DNA of 5,152 nucleotides from assembly GCA_024640925.1 (NCBI GenBank), contig JAHEEB010000393.1:1-5152 (forward strand), read 5' to 3'. This stretch comes from Bacteroidota bacterium. GTDB taxonomy: Bacteria; Bacteroidota; Bacteroidia; Bacteroidales; UBA10428. The notes under the pieces are model-generated. The model was not told the origin of the DNA. It ran no database searches and saw only the letters and a list, made by a program, of their open reading frames with translations. The translations under genes and the position numbers were made by a program. This document shows, in pieces, positions 1-5,152 of the stretch; the stretch's first letter is position 1, and the number at the start of each line of letters is the position of its first letter.

Positions 1-96
1 TTTTCCACTGGTAGTGTATATTTCTGTTTTAGCCCGAACCGGGTGATTTGCACCATACGATATCGTAAACTGTCCGGCAGAAGGGTTTGGGAATAG
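1..96 (-). repeat. T9SS sorting-domain coding repeat, truncated copy
   Basis: The first 32 residues of the sorting domain are visible: LFPNPSAGQFTIS, then KTEIYTTSGK. They align with the domain starts in the other three genes (FPNP motif, then T-x-S and EIY---GK). The remaining roughly 43 residues, including the final Lys-rich strand, lie beyond base 1. Confidence 0.85.
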
Positions 97-1458
97 TTTA
101 ATTTTTTGATCATCCATCTGCACGGCACCTGTTGTGGAAACATTTTTCAAACTATCGATAATGGCTGTGGAAACCCAGTAGATATTAGCAGAGGTCCCTC
201 CTCCCCTTGTGAAAAACAAATAGTTTCCGTCGGGCGATACAACCGGAAACCTTTCCCACTGGCTGGTATTTATCTTGTCGCCCATAGTTAATGGTGTTCC
301 CCACAAGCCATCTTCTGTTTTAAACTGCACAAACAAATCGGCATTATCGGCATTGCCCGCAAAAATGAGATAATCTTCTTCCGGCGAAATGTATATTGTC
401 CACCATGGACTGTATTCAGGTATCACTTCCCAGGGTGTCGGGCTGTAAAACTGGTCGTTGGAATAAATAAAACAAAGAGGGTCTTTGCTATATTGCAATC
501 CGGCCGAAAGATAGGCTTTGCTTTTCTTTGTGAACAGCGGAGTAGTTTCATCGTTTTCTGAGTTGTAAGGCTCCCCGGCATTTATTGGGTTGCTCCATCC
601 GCTGTCGGTTTTTTCTGCATACCAGGCATCGCTTTTTCCTAAACCGCCCGTGCGATTCGAAGAGAAAAATATTCTTTCGCCATCCGGAGTAAATGAGGGA
701 CTTCCATTGTTGTTTATCAGGTAATCTTTAACGAAACCGGCAATAACCGGGTTAATCCATATTCCGTTTTCCAATTGGGAGTACATTATCCTTTCCGTAG
801 AAGGGTTTATAGTCCAGAAAATCTCATCTCCCTTGGGTGAAATGGCTATACGGCCATGCACAAACCCGGTAATTATTCCAGGGGCAAATTGTTCAGGAAC
901 ATTACCCGGAGGTGTTTGTCCGAAGTACTTGAGCGAATCGGCAATATGATCTTCCACACAACGTATCGACCAGCCATTCTTCTTATCTGCAGTGTTCCAC
1001 AGGGACGATGTTGTAACTATCTCATCGTACTGGTATGCCTGGGCATGTCGATAAGCCATATCTTCACCAGCCGAAGTAGCAGACCAATAGTGTGTGTACA
1101 TACCCAGACAACAGAATGAACCATCGCCCCAATGGCTTCCCGCCGGAAGCCCGTTAAAACCACTCTCGTTGGTTGCCCCTGTATTCGGACTTTTCCAATG
1201 CTCTGTGCCGGTCTCTTTTAATTTTCCTGGAACTCTCGGGGGGCGATTAATCCACCAGAACACTTCGTTCCCATCTGGTGAAAATGCCGGAGAGCTGTGA
1301 TTAAGTGTAGTATCGACAGAAACAATTCCACGGGCAAATACTACAGGGGTATTGCCTGGTGGGGTAAGTCCCAAATAATCTATGGAATCAGTTTGGGAAA
1401 AAGTCTTTGGGACAATTAATCCTAAAAAGGAAAAAGCAATTAGTATTTTTGTTTTCAA
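1..1458 (-). CDS. PD40 (TolB-like) beta-propeller protein with embedded FISUMP segment and T9SS sorting domain; 3' end cut by window edge
   Basis: The frame is open for 486 codons from a TTG at 1458 to base 1. Residues 1-21 form a signal peptide (Lys-Thr-Lys, then a hydrophobic stretch), probably cleaved before Gln22. A conserved DYLG-TPPGN mature start follows at 27-36, and a first PD40 motif (FSPDGNEVFW) at 59-68. Residues 78-170 are a FISUMP C-terminal half. The mature start then recurs at 177-186 and a full PD40 body follows: SPKGDEIFW at 207, FTPDGERIFF at 256, SNRTGGLGKSDAW at 267, SPEEDYLIF at 358, SPDGNYLFF at 408, IYWVSTAIID at 426. The LFPNP of the type A sorting domain is at 455-459. 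The PD40 body matches the gene at 2886-4052. PD40 propellers of this kind are exported; their ligand is unknown. TTG is chosen because an in-frame TAA lies two codons upstream and the signal peptide needs this start. It is the last gene of the run, 20 bases after the kelch gene stop. G+C is visibly higher than in the other genes. A decaying chimera is possible, but no internal stop or frameshift is seen. Confidence 0.82.
   Translation of the reverse strand, partial: MKTKILIAFSFLGLIVPKTFSQTDSIDYLGLTPPGNTPVVFARGIVSVDTTLNHSSPAFSPDGNEVFWWINRPPRVPGKLKETGTEHWKSPNTGATNESGFNGLPAGSHWGDGSFCCLGMYTHYWSATSAGEDMAYRHAQAYQYDEIVTTSSLWNTADKKNGWSIRCVEDHIADSLKYFGQTPPGNVPEQFAPGIITGFVHGRIAISPKGDEIFWTINPSTERIMYSQLENGIWINPVIAGFVKDYLINNNGSPSFTPDGERIFFSSNRTGGLGKSDAWYAEKTDSGWSNPINAGEPYNSENDETTPLFTKKSKAYLSAGLQYSKDPLCFIYSNDQFYSPTPWEVIPEYSPWWTIYISPEEDYLIFAGNADNADLFVQFKTEDGLWGTPLTMGDKINTSQWERFPVVSPDGNYLFFTRGGGTSANIYWVSTAIIDSLKNVSTTGAVQMDDQKIKLFPNPSAGQFTISYGANHPVRAKTEIYTTSGK
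871..930 (-). repeat. Second copy of the mature PD40 N-terminal motif (first copy at 1321-1380)
   Basis: Residues 177-196 repeat residues 27-46 of the same protein with 12 of 20 identical, including TPPGN, and the two copies are exactly 150 codons apart. The PD40 paralogue at 2886-4052 has this motif once, right after its signal peptide. The second copy matches the paralogue slightly better (13 of 20) than the first does (12 of 20). The DNA of the two copies has diverged, so the duplication or fusion is not recent. Confidence 0.8.
949..1227 (-). other. FISUMP (Fib_succ_major, TIGR02145-like) C-terminal half embedded in a PD40 protein
   Basis: Residues 78-170 of the host gene read as the second half of a Fibrobacter succinogenes major paralogous domain. 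The landmarks are in family order: GKLKETGTEHW (78-88), SPNTGATNESGFNGLPAG (90-107), a Gly/Ser turn with G-SF--LG (113-119), YWSATSAG (124-131), a polar loop, and the terminal GWSIRCVED (162-170). The family's N-terminal half, with its WMAENL-type opening, the YGRLY segment and the GW-xP segment, is absent. The surrounding sequence is PD40, so the piece looks transplanted in frame. The identification rests on recalled family motifs, not on a search. FISUMP domains occur in exported proteins of Fibrobacteres and Bacteroidota; their role is not established. Confidence 0.8.
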
Positions 1459-1481
1459 AGTTTATGATATTGATTTCATTA
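1456..1481 (-). promoter_or_regulatory. Gene junction with TAATG stop/start overlap, aborted ATG and TTG start
   Basis: The kelch gene stops with TAA at 1481-1479, and this overlaps an ATG at 1479-1477. That ATG is in frame with the downstream PD40 gene but meets TAA after five codons (ATG AAA TCA ATA TCA TAA, stop at 1464-1462). Two codons later comes TTG AAA ACA AAA, which aligns with ATG GAA ACA AAA of the PD40 gene at 4040. No Shine-Dalgarno sequence is visible, which is usual in Bacteroidota. TTG is therefore the likely start, possibly reached by re-initiation after the kelch gene. Confidence 0.6.
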
Positions 1482-2825
1482 TTCTTTTATAATTTTCTCC
1501 TCGAAACATAATCCATCGGCAATAACCTTAACAACATAAATTCCCGACTGAAAGCCAGTTAAATCAATAGTTGCAGTTGTTTGGTTTTGATAGGATTTTG
1601 CAAGAGCAAGTTTGCCATCTATTTTGTATATTTCTATTGTTGCGTGCTTTTGTGGAGTTTTACTAAAGGAAAGGGTAGCAAGACCGGAAGTAGGATTGGG
1701 GAAAATGCATATAGTTTTTTCCGTGTAAAAATTATTAATGCTTACGCTTCTTTTTTCCAGTTCATAAACTGAATTGTAACCAGTAAATGAATTATTGCAA
1801 CCATTGATTACATATATTTTTCCATTACGGGAGGTAATGCCGGCATAAGCTATTAACTTAGGTGTTTTAGCAGTAGAAATTCTCCACGTACCACTTTTTA
1901 TATTATAAATAAAAATCCTGTCATCAATTATATTGTAATATCCGTCTCTCCAGCCACAAAGCACCCATATTTCATTTGCAATTAGTTCAGCCCCGGTCAT
2001 ACTTCGCGTAAACGGCAAAGCAGGCGCAATTGACCATGTATTGTTTATTGTATTATATACTTCTACATTTTTAAGGGAAGTCCAAATTGATTTTGAATCA
2101 CCTTCACCTCCAATTACATAAATCAATGAATCAACAGCAACAACTGAAACATTCTGACGAGGTGTTGGCATTGGGGCAAGTTCTTCCCATTTGTTTTTCT
2201 TGCAATTATATCGTTGATTTTTATTAGAAGGGATTGTCTTTTCTATATCAGAACCTTGATCATAGTTTCCTTTTTCAAGACCACCAATTACATAAATAAA
2301 GGAATCAATAACAGCACTTGAGTATGCAATATGTTGCCTTGGAGTTGGCATATTTTCTTTTAGGTTCCATTTTCCCGTTATCAAATTGTAACAGTATGTT
2401 TTATTCGAAAACCAATCACCACCAATTATATATAAACAACTGTCTATTGTTTTTAAAGAACAATTGTATACCCTTTCAGGTACTGTATCGAGAATTTTCC
2501 ATTTTGAACTTGTGAACGAATAATAATAAACAAAAGAAGTATTAACAGTGGCAATATTGTAGTTAGCAATAAAGAAAAGTGATGAATCGTTTGATGTTGC
2601 CGATGCAGCAGCAAGGGATGATAAAGGAAAATCGGGCAAGGTATTCCAGGAAATATCCTGAGCAGGTATTGTCTTACTTAGAACAAGAATGGCTATTAAA
2701 AAATATACTTTTTTTATTCGAAAATAATTCTTTTTAAGAGCCGGATAACCTGTCCTGCAGGTGAGGAAAATCTCCCATAAAGAATTTTCAGCTTTGTTTA
2801 TGTTTTTAATAAAAAATGGTTTCAT
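1479..2825 (-). CDS. Kelch-repeat beta-propeller protein with T9SS C-terminal sorting domain
   Basis: From the ATG at 2825 the product has 448 residues. The same frame also has a TTG at 2849, eight codons earlier; numbering here counts from that TTG (456 residues). An export signal ends near residue 63: basic RIKK, hydrophobic VYFLIAILVL at 48-57, cleavage before Gln64. It is preceded by an unusually long leader. Six kelch-like units follow, each with a Trp near 68, 117, 161, 221, 272 and 322. The classic signatures are LYIIGG (139), IYVIGG (185 and 243), MPTPRQ (167 and 227) and YN-----W. Six units would suit a closed propeller. Residues 382-456 are a type A sorting domain (IFPNP to EEKIIKE). 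Kelch propellers in secreted Bacteroidota proteins are thought to bind proteins or glycans; no catalytic residues are recognisable, and the ligand is unknown. It lies between two PD40 genes, on the same strand and closely spaced. Confidence 0.9.
   Translation of the reverse strand: MKPFFIKNINKAENSLWEIFLTCRTGYPALKKNYFRIKKVYFLIAILVLSKTIPAQDISWNTLPDFPLSSLAAASATSNDSSLFFIANYNIATVNTSFVYYYSFTSSKWKILDTVPERVYNCSLKTIDSCLYIIGGDWFSNKTYCYNLITGKWNLKENMPTPRQHIAYSSAVIDSFIYVIGGLEKGNYDQGSDIEKTIPSNKNQRYNCKKNKWEELAPMPTPRQNVSVVAVDSLIYVIGGEGDSKSIWTSLKNVEVYNTINNTWSIAPALPFTRSMTGAELIANEIWVLCGWRDGYYNIIDDRIFIYNIKSGTWRISTAKTPKLIAYAGITSRNGKIYVINGCNNSFTGYNSVYELEKRSVSINNFYTEKTICIFPNPTSGLATLSFSKTPQKHATIEIYKIDGKLALAKSYQNQTTATIDLTGFQSGIYVVKVIADGLCFEEKIIKE
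1482..1706 (-). repeat. T9SS sorting-domain coding repeat (kelch gene copy)
   Basis: This encodes 75 residues from IFPNPTSG to KIIKE. By hand count 46 of 75 match the copy at 2889-3113 and 45 of 75 match the copy at 4052-4279, although the domains in front of them are unrelated. Conserved points are FPNP, EIY---GK, TATIDLTG, GIYVVKV and ADG-----EEK. In type A T9SS cargo this tail is recognised for export and is often removed when the protein is attached to the surface. Confidence 0.88.
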
Positions 2826-2885
2826 CTTATTTAAATTTTTATTTTTCAATTTCTTATCAGGAATAATATGGATATCTAAAATCTC

Positions 2886-4052
2886 TTATTCTTTTAAAAC
2901 CTTTTCTTCATAACTAACTCCATCGGCAAAAACCTTAACTACATACATACCCGCTTGAAAGCCTGTTAAATCAAAAGTTGCAGTTGTTTTATTTTGAAAT
3001 ATTTCTGAAAACACCAGCTTACCTTCGGTATTGTATATTTCAGTTGTTGCCTGTTTGAGTGGATTTGAATCAAAAGACATGGTAAAAAGACCTTTTGTGG
3101 GATTTGGGAAGAGATTTAAATTTTGAACTGTAGTATTCTTAACTGACACAGTAGGCATGGCAATTTTTTTCAGTGTATCAATAATACTTGTGCTAACCCA
3201 ATAAATATCCGAGATATTTTCATATGGGACATGACTGTTGTAGAACAGATACTTTCCGTCGGGAGAAAGTGATGGCCTGCTCTGGAAGAGCGTATTGTTA
3301 CTATTGATACCTGCACCACTTCTATCCATATTCAAAGGTTTTGTCCATTCGTTGTTTCCTTTGTTAAAACTTATACAGAGATGCTCATACATTGTATTTG
3401 ATTGGGTAAAGATTATAAATGATCCATCGGGGGCAACGCATGGAGTAAGGTTCCTGAGAGTTGAATTTATAACTGGCCCAAGATTTTCTGCCTGATCAGA
3501 CGAAGGGAGTATACGCCAAATTTCTAACATCTTACCCAGCCCATCAGGGCGATTAGAACCGAAATAAACAGTACCATCGGCAGTTTCACAGTAACTATGG
3601 TCTCCCGACGTAGAAGGAAGGCGTTGAGGTTCGCCCCATCCTCCTTCAGTGCGTTCGACCTTCCATATACTATTATCTGTTTCGAAATAAAGTTTATTTC
3701 CATCTACCGATAAACTGCTCAACACAACATTCTTATTCACCGAAAATGGAGCTTCCACATGTTCTGTCCATGTATTGTTTACAAGCTTTTTGCAATAGAT
3801 TTTACTTGTAAAACCGTTATTAACATATTCAGAAACCGTAAAGTAACATTCATTACCATCGGGAGTAAAAGCTATATTGTCTTCAATGCGATTGGTAAGG
3901 GAAATGATATCGGGGGCAAACTTTGCAGCTTTGTTACCCGGAGGAGTTTGGCCTAAGTAGTCAATAGTGTCGGTTTGTGCAATCGATGTTAAAGTAATAA
4001 CTCCTAATAAGGAGAGAGCAATCATTGTTTTTGTTTCCATTTTGTATTTCAT
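2886..4052 (-). CDS. PD40 (TolB-like) beta-propeller protein with T9SS C-terminal sorting domain
   Basis: A complete gene of 388 codons. The signal peptide spans residues 1-25 (METKTMIALSLLGVI core), cleaved before Gln26. The mature start motif DYLGQTPPGN is at 31-40. PD40-type blade motifs follow: FTPDGNECYF (62), LSVDGNKLYF (114), ETADGTVYF with SNRPDGLG (156-173), VAPDGSFIIF (207) and LSPDGKYLFY (262). IYWVSTSIID (283) comes near the propeller end, as in the paralogue at the left edge. Residues 314-388 are the type A sorting domain. PD40 repeats are the TolB-type WD40-like blades; in exported proteins of this type the ligand is not known, and I see no catalytic site. The ATG at 4052 overlaps the preceding TGA (ATGA), which favours translational coupling. 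A second in-frame ATG at 4040 aligns better with the TTG of the paralogue and is an equally good start. Confidence 0.92.
   Translation of the reverse strand: MKYKMETKTMIALSLLGVITLTSIAQTDTIDYLGQTPPGNKAAKFAPDIISLTNRIEDNIAFTPDGNECYFTVSEYVNNGFTSKIYCKKLVNNTWTEHVEAPFSVNKNVVLSSLSVDGNKLYFETDNSIWKVERTEGGWGEPQRLPSTSGDHSYCETADGTVYFGSNRPDGLGKMLEIWRILPSSDQAENLGPVINSTLRNLTPCVAPDGSFIIFTQSNTMYEHLCISFNKGNNEWTKPLNMDRSGAGINSNNTLFQSRPSLSPDGKYLFYNSHVPYENISDIYWVSTSIIDTLKKIAMPTVSVKNTTVQNLNLFPNPTKGLFTMSFDSNPLKQATTEIYNTEGKLVFSEIFQNKTTATFDLTGFQAGMYVVKVFADGVSYEEKVLKE
2889..3113 (-). repeat. T9SS sorting-domain coding repeat (PD40 gene copy)
   Basis: This encodes 75 residues from LFPNPTKG to KVLKE, the final domain of the complete PD40 gene. 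It shares QNKTTATFDLTGFQAGMYVV-type core sequence with the copies in the kelch and FG-GAP genes. The sequence just before it is a short linker of about 20 residues rich in Val, Thr and Asn. Confidence 0.88.
4038..4052 (-). promoter_or_regulatory. ATGA stop/start overlap and alternative ATG of the PD40 gene
   Basis: The TGA of the FG-GAP gene (4051-4049) shares bases with an ATG (4052-4050). A second ATG lies four codons later (4040-4038). No Shine-Dalgarno sequence is visible. The overlap suggests coupled translation; the second ATG gives a more compact signal peptide (METKTMIA). The layout resembles the junction ahead of the other PD40 gene at 1481-1456. Confidence 0.65.
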
Positions 4053-5152
4053 TCTTGTTTTAGAATTTTCTCTTCATAACTAATCCCGTCTGCAATAACC
4101 TTAACCACGTACATTCCCGCCTTATAGCCATTTAAATCAATAGTTGCAGTTGCTGGATTTTGAAATGTTTTTGCAAGTATTAGTTTGCCTTCATTGGTGT
4201 ATATTTCAGCTATTGCTTTTTGAACAGGCAATGAGCCAAAGGATATTGTGAATTGGCTGGTAGTTGGATTGGGAAATATTATGGGTTCTTTTATAGTAGT
4301 TGTTTCCAGTAATGTTGATATAGTGGTATTAAACCAAACCCTGTTTGGATTGACAATTCCATTAGCATCGCCACATGCCAAAAACAAGTCTAAATCTCCG
4401 TCATTGTCCAAATCGCCGGCTGCCAGAGATATACTTTTAACCATTTCAGGGTTTATAGTGCTTGCAGTGAAATTAGCGTACCCATCATTAAATAATATCT
4501 CGCTTTTTTGTGAAAAATCAAATGCATGGCCATGGTTCATGAATATGTCTAAATCGCCATCGTTATCAAAATCGGCGATTATTGGATTATAGGTAAGATA
4601 GGATGAGTGATATGGTAGTGGTGCCTCATTAAAATGTCCTGTTTTATCGTTTAGGTATAATTTAACAGGATATATTGTTCCAAGCGCAGGATGGTGATAA
4701 TTACCCTGGAGTAAGTCCAAATAACCATCGCCATTTAAATCGGCAAATATAACAGTAACAGTATTATACGTTCCGGTTAACTGCTGGTCGCTTACAACAA
4801 AGTTTCCGGTTTTATCATTAAAAAGAATAAAATTAGGTCCATTCTGGCACAAAACAATATCTGAATAACCATCATTATTTATGTCTCCGACAGCAAAGTT
4901 TTGGGCCAGTATATGTTTGACGACAAAAGTATTTTCAATTTTAAAAGCAGTAGTGTCAATTGAATATATTCTCACAATGGTACTATCTCCGTTACTTTCA
5001 ATAGTAATTGCTTTTGCCTGATCTAAAGCATTTATTTTTCTATCGAAAGTAATTGACCATCCTTCAAATATATATTTATTTGAAACAGTAAAGTTTGCGT
5101 TACCATTGTTGAGCCAGATGTGATTATCAATTATATCTAAGTCCCCGTCAAA
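4049..5152 (-). CDS. FG-GAP/VCBS repeat protein with T9SS C-terminal sorting domain; 5' part beyond window
   Basis: The frame is open from the right edge to TGA at 4049, giving 367 visible residues. Calcium-binding loops of the D-x-[DN]-x-D-G-x-x-D type recur: a partial DGDLD at residues 2-6, then DINNDGYSD (90), DLNGDGYLD (138), DFDNDGDLD (194) and DLDNDGDLD (247). Several are followed by LFND---GNF or LYLND---GHF turns. This is the FG-GAP_3/VCBS pattern of integrin-like propellers, usually of about seven blades, so two or more blades and the signal peptide are probably to the right. The first and second loops are 84 residues apart, whereas the others are 48-56 apart; residues about 30-75 may be an inserted strand or a degenerate blade. 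Residues 292-367 are the type A sorting domain, ending in Lys-Gln-Glu. A GTG at 4975 is in frame but lies inside the repeat region and is not a credible start. Extracellular calcium-dependent adhesion is plausible for the family but not shown here. Confidence 0.9.
   Translation of the reverse strand, partial: FDGDLDIIDNHIWLNNGNANFTVSNKYIFEGWSITFDRKINALDQAKAITIESNGDSTIVRIYSIDTTAFKIENTFVVKHILAQNFAVGDINNDGYSDIVLCQNGPNFILFNDKTGNFVVSDQQLTGTYNTVTVIFADLNGDGYLDLLQGNYHHPALGTIYPVKLYLNDKTGHFNEAPLPYHSSYLTYNPIIADFDNDGDLDIFMNHGHAFDFSQKSEILFNDGYANFTASTINPEMVKSISLAAGDLDNDGDLDLFLACGDANGIVNPNRVWFNTTISTLLETTTIKEPIIFPNPTTSQFTISFGSLPVQKAIAEIYTNEGKLILAKTFQNPATATIDLNGYKAGMYVVKVIADGISYEEKILKQE
4052..4279 (-). repeat. 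T9SS sorting-domain coding repeat (FG-GAP gene copy)
   Basis: This encodes 76 residues from IFPNPTTS to KILKQE; the extra Gln before the last Glu is unique among the copies. It shares 45 of 75 residues with the kelch gene copy, including a run of 21 identical bases (4132-4152 against 1559-1579). Such DNA-level identity inside a diverged domain is compatible with shared descent or occasional gene conversion. Confidence 0.88.
4388..5149 (-). repeat. Array of five FG-GAP calcium-loop repeats
   Basis: Calcium-loop codons lie at 4388-4414, 4547-4573, 4715-4741, 4859-4885 and, partly, 5135-5149. Spacing between starts is 159, 168 and 144 bases, then about 250 to the outermost. The loops keep acidic positions 1, 5 and 9 and the Gly at 6. 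The DNA differs between copies, so this is an old protein repeat and not a recent DNA repeat. Confidence 0.85.

What the first reader, a model, noticed from the sequence alone, without database searches (positions are those of the whole stretch)
937..1245. Half of a FISUMP domain spliced in frame into a PD40 propeller protein
Residues 78-170 of the left-edge gene have the order and spacing of the C-terminal half of a FISUMP domain (GKLKETGT, SPNTGATNESGF, YWSATS, GWSIRCVED). They are flanked on both sides by PD40 sequence, and the FISUMP N-terminal half is missing. I know of no standard architecture of this kind. It could be a real new fusion (for example a binding module added at the tip of a secreted propeller), a relic of non-homologous recombination, or an assembly chimera. 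The uninterrupted frame favours a maintained gene.
Basis: partly seen in the sequence, partly recalled or inferred. Interest (0 to 1): 0.75.

Follow-up and report, generated by a model that had tools for sequence, protein, structure and literature searches.

The report
Propeller gene with a swapped front
A bacterial gene for a predicted secreted propeller protein lacks the front half of its attached FISUMP domain and carries the front of a different propeller gene instead, most likely through one in-frame deletion between neighbouring genes, so it is probably a one-off fusion rather than a new protein design.

Summary
The half FISUMP domain is there (residues 78-170, window 949-1227; PF09603 42.7 bits, cut-off 33.9), but not as an insert with two odd junctions. 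Residues 78-486 are collinear, at 60% identity, with the FISUMP-propeller protein P0001; 19 of 313 fetched homologues have an intact FISUMP followed within about 30 residues by this propeller. So the right junction is ordinary. The left one is odd: residues 25-75 match the front of another PD40 type and residues 77-170 the FISUMP profile, which puts the break at codons 75-77, window 1228-1236. None of the 27 fetched proteins with both domains has that join. The gene lies in a tandem array of propeller genes with T9SS tails; contig C166, which shares a unique 32-base end overlap with the window, has two such PD40 types side by side in the same order. Best explanation: one in-frame deletion fused two such neighbours, leaving a complete propeller and a FISUMP half that would be non-functional. 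An assembly or cross-genome chimera is not excluded: third-position GC steps near the junction, and no reads were available.

The parts
1..1458 (-). Chimeric gene, 486 codons, TTG start, open at the contig's left end
   Evidence: an in-frame TAA lies two codons upstream of the TTG (sequence printed)
1393..1458 (-). Predicted signal peptide, residues 1-22
   Evidence: read by eye, no predictor run; resembles the starts of array paralogues (69% DNA identity over gene bases 2-137 with C166)
1234..1386 (-). Front of a PD40 protein of another type ('t2'), residues 25-75
   Evidence: 85.1 bits against a profile of 14 t2 fronts; 60% identity to P0089 over residues 1-72
1228..1236 (-). Breakpoint, codons 75-77
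   Evidence: t2 profile ends at residue 75, FISUMP profile begins at 77; all 3 DNA matches to C902 FISUMP genes start at gene base 231
949..1227 (-). C-terminal half of a FISUMP domain, residues 78-170
898..963 (-). Linker from FISUMP to propeller, residues 166-187, of the FISUMP-propeller family kind
   Evidence: alignments
139..939 (-). PD40 propeller ('t1'), residues 174-440
   Evidence: PF07676 51.9 bits; 24 of the 27 ten-residue blocks from 171 to 440 predicted at pLDDT 82 or more; TolB ranks first in the PDB
1..96 (-). Start of a T9SS sorting tail, residues 455-486, cut off by the contig end
   Evidence: PF18962 14.5 bits, below its cut-off of 27
1479..2849 (-). Neighbour: Kelch propeller with T9SS tail
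2886..4052 (-). Neighbour: PD40 propeller with T9SS tail
4049..5152 (-). Neighbour: FG-GAP protein with T9SS tail, open at the contig end
5121..5152 (.). 32 bases shared exactly with the end of own contig C166; no other copy in the assembly up to 3 mismatches

Best explanation
This is a FISUMP-propeller gene in which the first 75 codons of a different PD40 propeller gene stand where relatives have a signal peptide and the first half of the FISUMP domain, most likely through one in-frame deletion that fused two neighbouring genes of a tandem array. Shown: the two parts, the break at codons 75-77, the collinearity of the rest with P0001-type proteins, and an array in which two such PD40 types are neighbours in the same order. 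Inferred: that the deletion happened in this genome; that the protein is still exported by the swapped signal peptide and the T9SS tail; that the intact propeller keeps its role, probably binding at the cell surface; and that the FISUMP half no longer works as a binding domain.
For: Residues 78-486 are collinear with P0001 132-537 at 60% identity, without a break at the FISUMP-propeller linker. Of 27 fetched proteins with both domains, 24 have an intact FISUMP first, 1 (P0224) begins inside its FISUMP, 2 have the propeller first and an intact FISUMP after it, and 0 share the window's left join. The front matches the t2 PD40 type, and on C166, which abuts the window by a unique 32-base overlap, a t2-like gene (40% identity to the t2 protein P0115) directly precedes a t1 gene. 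FISUMP half and propeller have the same third-position GC (0.452, 0.453), unlike the pooled array genes (0.302, p=2.3e-8), while the front (0.324) fits the array (p=0.70). No near-identical copy of either part was found in this bin. The FISUMP half departs at 0 of 17 columns conserved at 90% or more and the propeller at 2 of 33, within the range of the relatives. Two stand-alone FISUMP C halves that are not retroelement templates by their looks, one of them on C412 of this genome, show that half copies occur elsewhere.
Against: The unfused parents (a t2 gene beside a FISUMP-t1 gene) were not found. The composition step would also arise if two organisms' DNA had been joined in assembly; front against body alone is borderline (p=0.053), and 200-codon windows in other genes of the genome reach 0.45, so the body is not outside the genome's range. 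No other assembly shows the left join among the matches listed. The bin is fragmented (1131 contigs, 82% complete). Two alignments run on past the break: P0115 pairs with residues 9-93 (window 1434-1180) and the propeller profile with residues 24-161, so the break rests on where the two local profiles end.
Confidence: 0.5

Rival explanations
1. Assembly chimera: the contig wrongly joins the front of a PD40 gene to the back of a FISUMP-propeller gene from elsewhere in the genome or from another organism of the sample.
For: The join is seen only here among the matches listed. Third-position GC steps near the join and the body differs from the array. The bin is fragmented, and contigs C902 and C445 also end inside FISUMP genes. 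C902 holds two tandem genes that share an identical run of 846 bases, a repeat that short reads resolve badly (recalled). C902:111-389 is a FISUMP match of profile 1-89 near a contig end, the nearest thing to a cut-off N half.
Against: The frame is kept. The C902 piece runs on for some 37 residues of other sequence to the contig end, so it is not the missing half cut at this break, and no remnant of a t2 gene cut there appeared among the 18 matches. A t1 propeller gene also exists on C166, in the same array.
Confidence: 0.33
2. A maintained new module: the FISUMP half, perhaps completed by strands of the PD40 front, is displayed on the propeller and selected as a binding surface.
For: Open frame of 486 codons; no decay at conserved FISUMP columns; in a relative's locus this half is the part diversified by a retroelement, and passages of PMC4159848 and PMC8143477 report FISUMP domains as such targets.
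Against: No second example of the join was found; residues 9-170 are predicted without confidence, although the intact FISUMP of P0001 was poorly predicted too; TTG start.
Confidence: 0.12
3. Retroelement or cassette exchange: FISUMP C halves are shuffled into genes from templates or silent cassettes.
For: Orphan C halves exist; the L154 one is the template of a diversity-generating retroelement, with 25 of 27 substitutions at template adenines.
Against: No near-identical template for the window's half in its genome; the two reverse transcriptases found there look like group II intron enzymes by motifs recalled, not tested; orphan C halves (2 besides the template) do not outnumber N halves without a C half away from an edge (3, of which L007 has a full Pfam match); here the front was exchanged, not the C half.
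Confidence: 0.04

Closest known systems
FISUMP-propeller-T9SS proteins (P0001, P0121 and relatives; found in the protein search, several named by their source 'TIGR02145 family')
   Same: Residues 78-486 collinear, linker after FISUMP, same propeller, start of the tail
   Different: They have an intact FISUMP behind their own signal peptide; the window has the front of another PD40 type instead
FISUMP domain, PF09603 / TIGR02145
   Same: Over Pfam's cut-off; conserved motifs of the C-terminal half kept
   Different: N-terminal half absent; below the TIGR02145 cut-off
PD40 / TolB-type beta-propellers, PF07676
   Same: PD40 repeats; TolB ranks first among solved structures
   Different: The match is moderate (the 18 TolB chains that rank first: TM-score 0.31-0.33 by query and 0.36-0.39 by target length, rmsd about 5); predicted to be secreted, with a T9SS-type tail

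Membership tests
FISUMP (PF09603) | Score over Pfam's gathering cut-off | tested here: met
   42.7 against 33.9 bits
FISUMP (PF09603) | Complete domain, profile 1-187 | tested here: not met
   Profile 100-186 only; own profile 109-197 of 197
FISUMP (TIGR02145) | Score over NCBIfam's cut-off | tested here: not met
   31.8 against 41.65 bits
FISUMP-propeller-T9SS architecture | FISUMP, short linker, propeller in this order | tested here: met
   the linker reads EDHIADS here and EDPI(P/A)(D/E)(S/T) in the 15 of the 19 relatives that were put into; P0004, P0023, P0080 and P0189 have other linkers
FISUMP-propeller-T9SS architecture | Intact FISUMP directly behind the signal peptide | tested here: not met
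PD40 propeller (PF07676) | Score over cut-off | tested here: met
   51.9 against 20.9 bits
Type IX secretion cargo | C-terminal sorting tail | tested here: inconclusive
   14.5 bits (cut-off 27), gene cut off by the contig end; the 3 neighbours in the window pass
Diversity-generating retroelement target | Near-identical template repeat, differences at adenines | tested here: not met
   No such copy in the assembly; genome 82% complete

The most novel reading that the evidence does not exclude
The join is real and kept: a half FISUMP domain, the half that is the variable one in a retroelement-diversified relative, folds against the swapped PD40 front and is displayed on a T9SS propeller as a new surface-binding module.
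Probability: 0.1. Interest if true: 0.6.

Novelty: new variant of a known kind. Interest (0 to 1): 0.3.

Why it matters
If real, it shows a tandem array of predicted secreted propeller genes making a new front-body combination through deletion between neighbours, and offers a test of whether half a FISUMP domain can stand on a propeller. It also brings out a recurrent FISUMP-propeller-T9SS architecture. I saw no description of that architecture in four literature searches: 'FISUMP' gave 0 papers, the domain's other names 8 (passages of 3 read, 5 seen as listing only), 'type IX secretion' with 'PD40' 1 (listing only), 'PD40' with 'Fib_succ_major' 0.

Tried and rejected
Insertion of half a domain into a propeller: rejected, because the right junction is the ordinary one and the FISUMP half and propeller look like one unit.

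Retroelement origin of the half: rejected for this gene.

Shuffling of C-half cassettes: orphan C halves do not outnumber the N halves without a C half, so not pursued.

Structure prediction of the half domain: uninformative, because the control P0001 with an intact FISUMP was also below 50 over residues 53-102 and 125-215.

Fold by sequence in the PDB: the FISUMP alignment found nothing better than E 0.23.

Relatives with the same left join: none seen among the matches listed (the lists are capped) for 8 other genomes of the genus and 392 others of the order (the match of G238, which runs from the PD40 front into the FISUMP part, is an ordinary PD40 front), nor among the best 120 listed of 639, 4015 and 3057 protein hits. 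Right linker: of 395 genomes of the phylum, the window's own included, only the window's gene matched a linker query from its first residue; the nine loci held from the other nine genomes with a match carry the propeller and no FISUMP. Two scans of genome contigs: the linker patterns gave no relative; P0001 gave 91 relatives, 80 kept. Of 141 FISUMP-bearing loci held by then, only the three copies of the window itself carry this propeller in the same frame.

One search for papers on fusion of adjacent genes gave one animal paper, listing only, not used.

Full report
What is there. The left-edge gene (window 1-1458, minus strand, TTG start, 486 open codons) has a Pfam FISUMP match at residues 71-168 covering profile positions 100-186 of 187 (42.7 bits, cut-off 33.9), and a TIGR02145 match under its cut-off (31.8 against 41.65). 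A scan of the window's own assembly (5.67 Mb, 1131 contigs, 82% complete) gives 13 FISUMP matches; the window's is one of two confined to the C-terminal half, the other being an 87-residue frame on contig C412.

Where the joints are. A profile built from 14 fronts of one PD40 type (here 't2', picked by a motif from the fetched proteins) aligns residues 25-75 at 85 bits, and more weakly residues 175-222 (44 bits), the start of the propeller; a FISUMP profile aligns residues 77-170 at 114 bits. That puts the break at codons 75-77, window 1228-1236. DNA matches to three FISUMP genes of contig C902 also begin at base 231 of the gene. Two other alignments run on past the break, P0115 to residue 93 and the propeller profile to residue 161, so the exact place rests on the two profiles. 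On the other side there is no abnormal joint: residues 78-486 align without a break to P0001 132-537 at 60% identity, including the linker, which reads RCVEDHIADSLKYFGQTPPGN here and RC(I/V/L)EDPI... in the 15 relatives aligned; four further relatives have other linkers.

The family behind it. Three protein searches listed the best 120 each of 639, 4015 and 3057 hits, 313 distinct proteins in all, one of them (P0137, no source given, contig length 4775) evidently C166's own t1 protein. Of the 313, 27 carry both FISUMP and this propeller: 24 with an intact FISUMP first (19 with the propeller starting within about 30 residues, 5 with about 280 residues between, where Pfam lists metallo-beta-lactamase-type domains, placed there for P0006), 1 (P0224) that begins inside its FISUMP, and 2 (P0034, P0073) with the propeller first and an intact FISUMP after it. 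None has the window's left join. A census of 530 distinct FISUMP C halves in these proteins and 192 loci found 518 with an N half before them and 12 without: 6 within 21 residues of a protein's start, 3 short orphan frames, one weak match (L179), a second domain of P0068, and the window. Of 519 with at least 60 residues of frame upstream, the three without an N half are L179, P0068 and the window.

The neighbourhood. The window's other three genes are a Kelch, a PD40 and an FG-GAP protein, all co-directional and all with T9SS tails above the cut-off. The far end of the window shares an exact 32-base overlap, found nowhere else in the assembly up to three mismatches, with the end of contig C166, and the FG-GAP frame continues across it. 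C166 carries three PD40-plus-tail genes: a t2-like gene (40% identity to P0115), directly followed by a t1 gene (53% identity to the window's propeller part) and then a third type. The same order, t2 front then t1 body, is seen inside the window's chimeric gene.

Composition. Third-position GC is 0.324 in the front (74 codons), 0.452 in the FISUMP half, 0.453 in the propeller, 0.348 in the 46 codons of the tail, and 0.302 in 2504 pooled codons of the array. Front and array agree (p=0.70), body and array differ (p=2.3e-8), front and body are borderline (p=0.053). In 144 windows of 200 codons from other genes of this genome the highest value was 0.45, so the body is high but not outside the genome's range. 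The FISUMP half and the propeller thus look like one unit and the front goes with the array. This fits a fusion; it also fits a contig that joins two organisms.

State of the gene. The FISUMP half departs from relatives at 0 of 17 columns conserved at 90% or more (3 of 31 at 80%), the propeller at 2 of 33, both within the range of the other rows. There is no stop. The start codon is TTG, where the C166 t1 paralogue has a methionine start. AlphaFold2 predicts the propeller with confidence (24 of 27 blocks from 171 to 440 at 82 or more) and residues 9-170 below 50; the control with an intact FISUMP was also poor there, so this does not show that the half is unfolded. TolB ranks first among solved structures, as a moderate match.

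How it most likely works. Shown by calls: the parts, the break, the array. Inferred: a deletion between neighbouring t2 and FISUMP-t1 genes removed the rest of the first, the gap, and the start of the second through the FISUMP N half, in frame. The product would be exported, anchored by the T9SS tail and display its propeller; the FISUMP half would be a passenger. What FISUMP domains do is not settled: passages of PMC4704652 list it among putative cellulose-binding proteins and as a possible cohesin analogue, and passages of PMC4159848 and PMC8143477 report it among targets of diversity-generating retroelements, in connection with the C-type lectin fold. In L154 I saw such a case directly.

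Limits. No reads, no unfused parent pair and no second case of the left join were available. I give the deletion reading 0.5 and an assembly or cross-genome chimera 0.33.

Noticed in passing
L154 (CAMCXM010000002.1, MAG titled Spirosoma fluviale): 6477-6680, 6689-7084, 7225-7425, 7399-8046: A diversity-generating retroelement aimed at a FISUMP C half: a variable repeat at the end of the FISUMP gene, an Avd-like frame (recalled likeness), a template repeat in which 25 of 27 substitutions are at adenines (plus one 3-base gap), and the start of a likely reverse transcriptase (its family was not tested).
   Followed up: partly
G000 contig C902 (L100) 1271-2653 and 2657-4126: Two tandem FISUMP genes share an identical run of 846 bases, yet differ at 56 of 270 bases in the FISUMP C half, against 10 of 273 in the N half and 35 of 840 before it: gene conversion with a diverging binding half, or an assembly artefact.
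   Followed up: partly
G000 contig C412 (L101) 2051-2311; L178 8157-8405: Stand-alone FISUMP C halves without an N half; the L178 one lies just downstream of complete FISUMP genes.
   Followed up: partly
P0006, P0010, P0020, P0021, P0165; L108 3-2525: Proteins for which Pfam lists FISUMP and metallo-beta-lactamase-type domains and which hold this PD40 propeller (in P0020 only its start), and a frame that appears to combine such a domain with two PD40 propellers (read by eye).
   Followed up: no
window 5121-5152 and C166 4744-4775: Two contigs abut by a unique 32-base overlap inside an FG-GAP gene, giving a run of seven co-directional genes, six of which have T9SS tails above the cut-off; the seventh, the chimera, is cut by the contig end.
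   Followed up: yes
window 1456-1458: The chimeric gene starts with TTG; an in-frame stop lies two codons upstream, so expression may be reduced.
   Followed up: no
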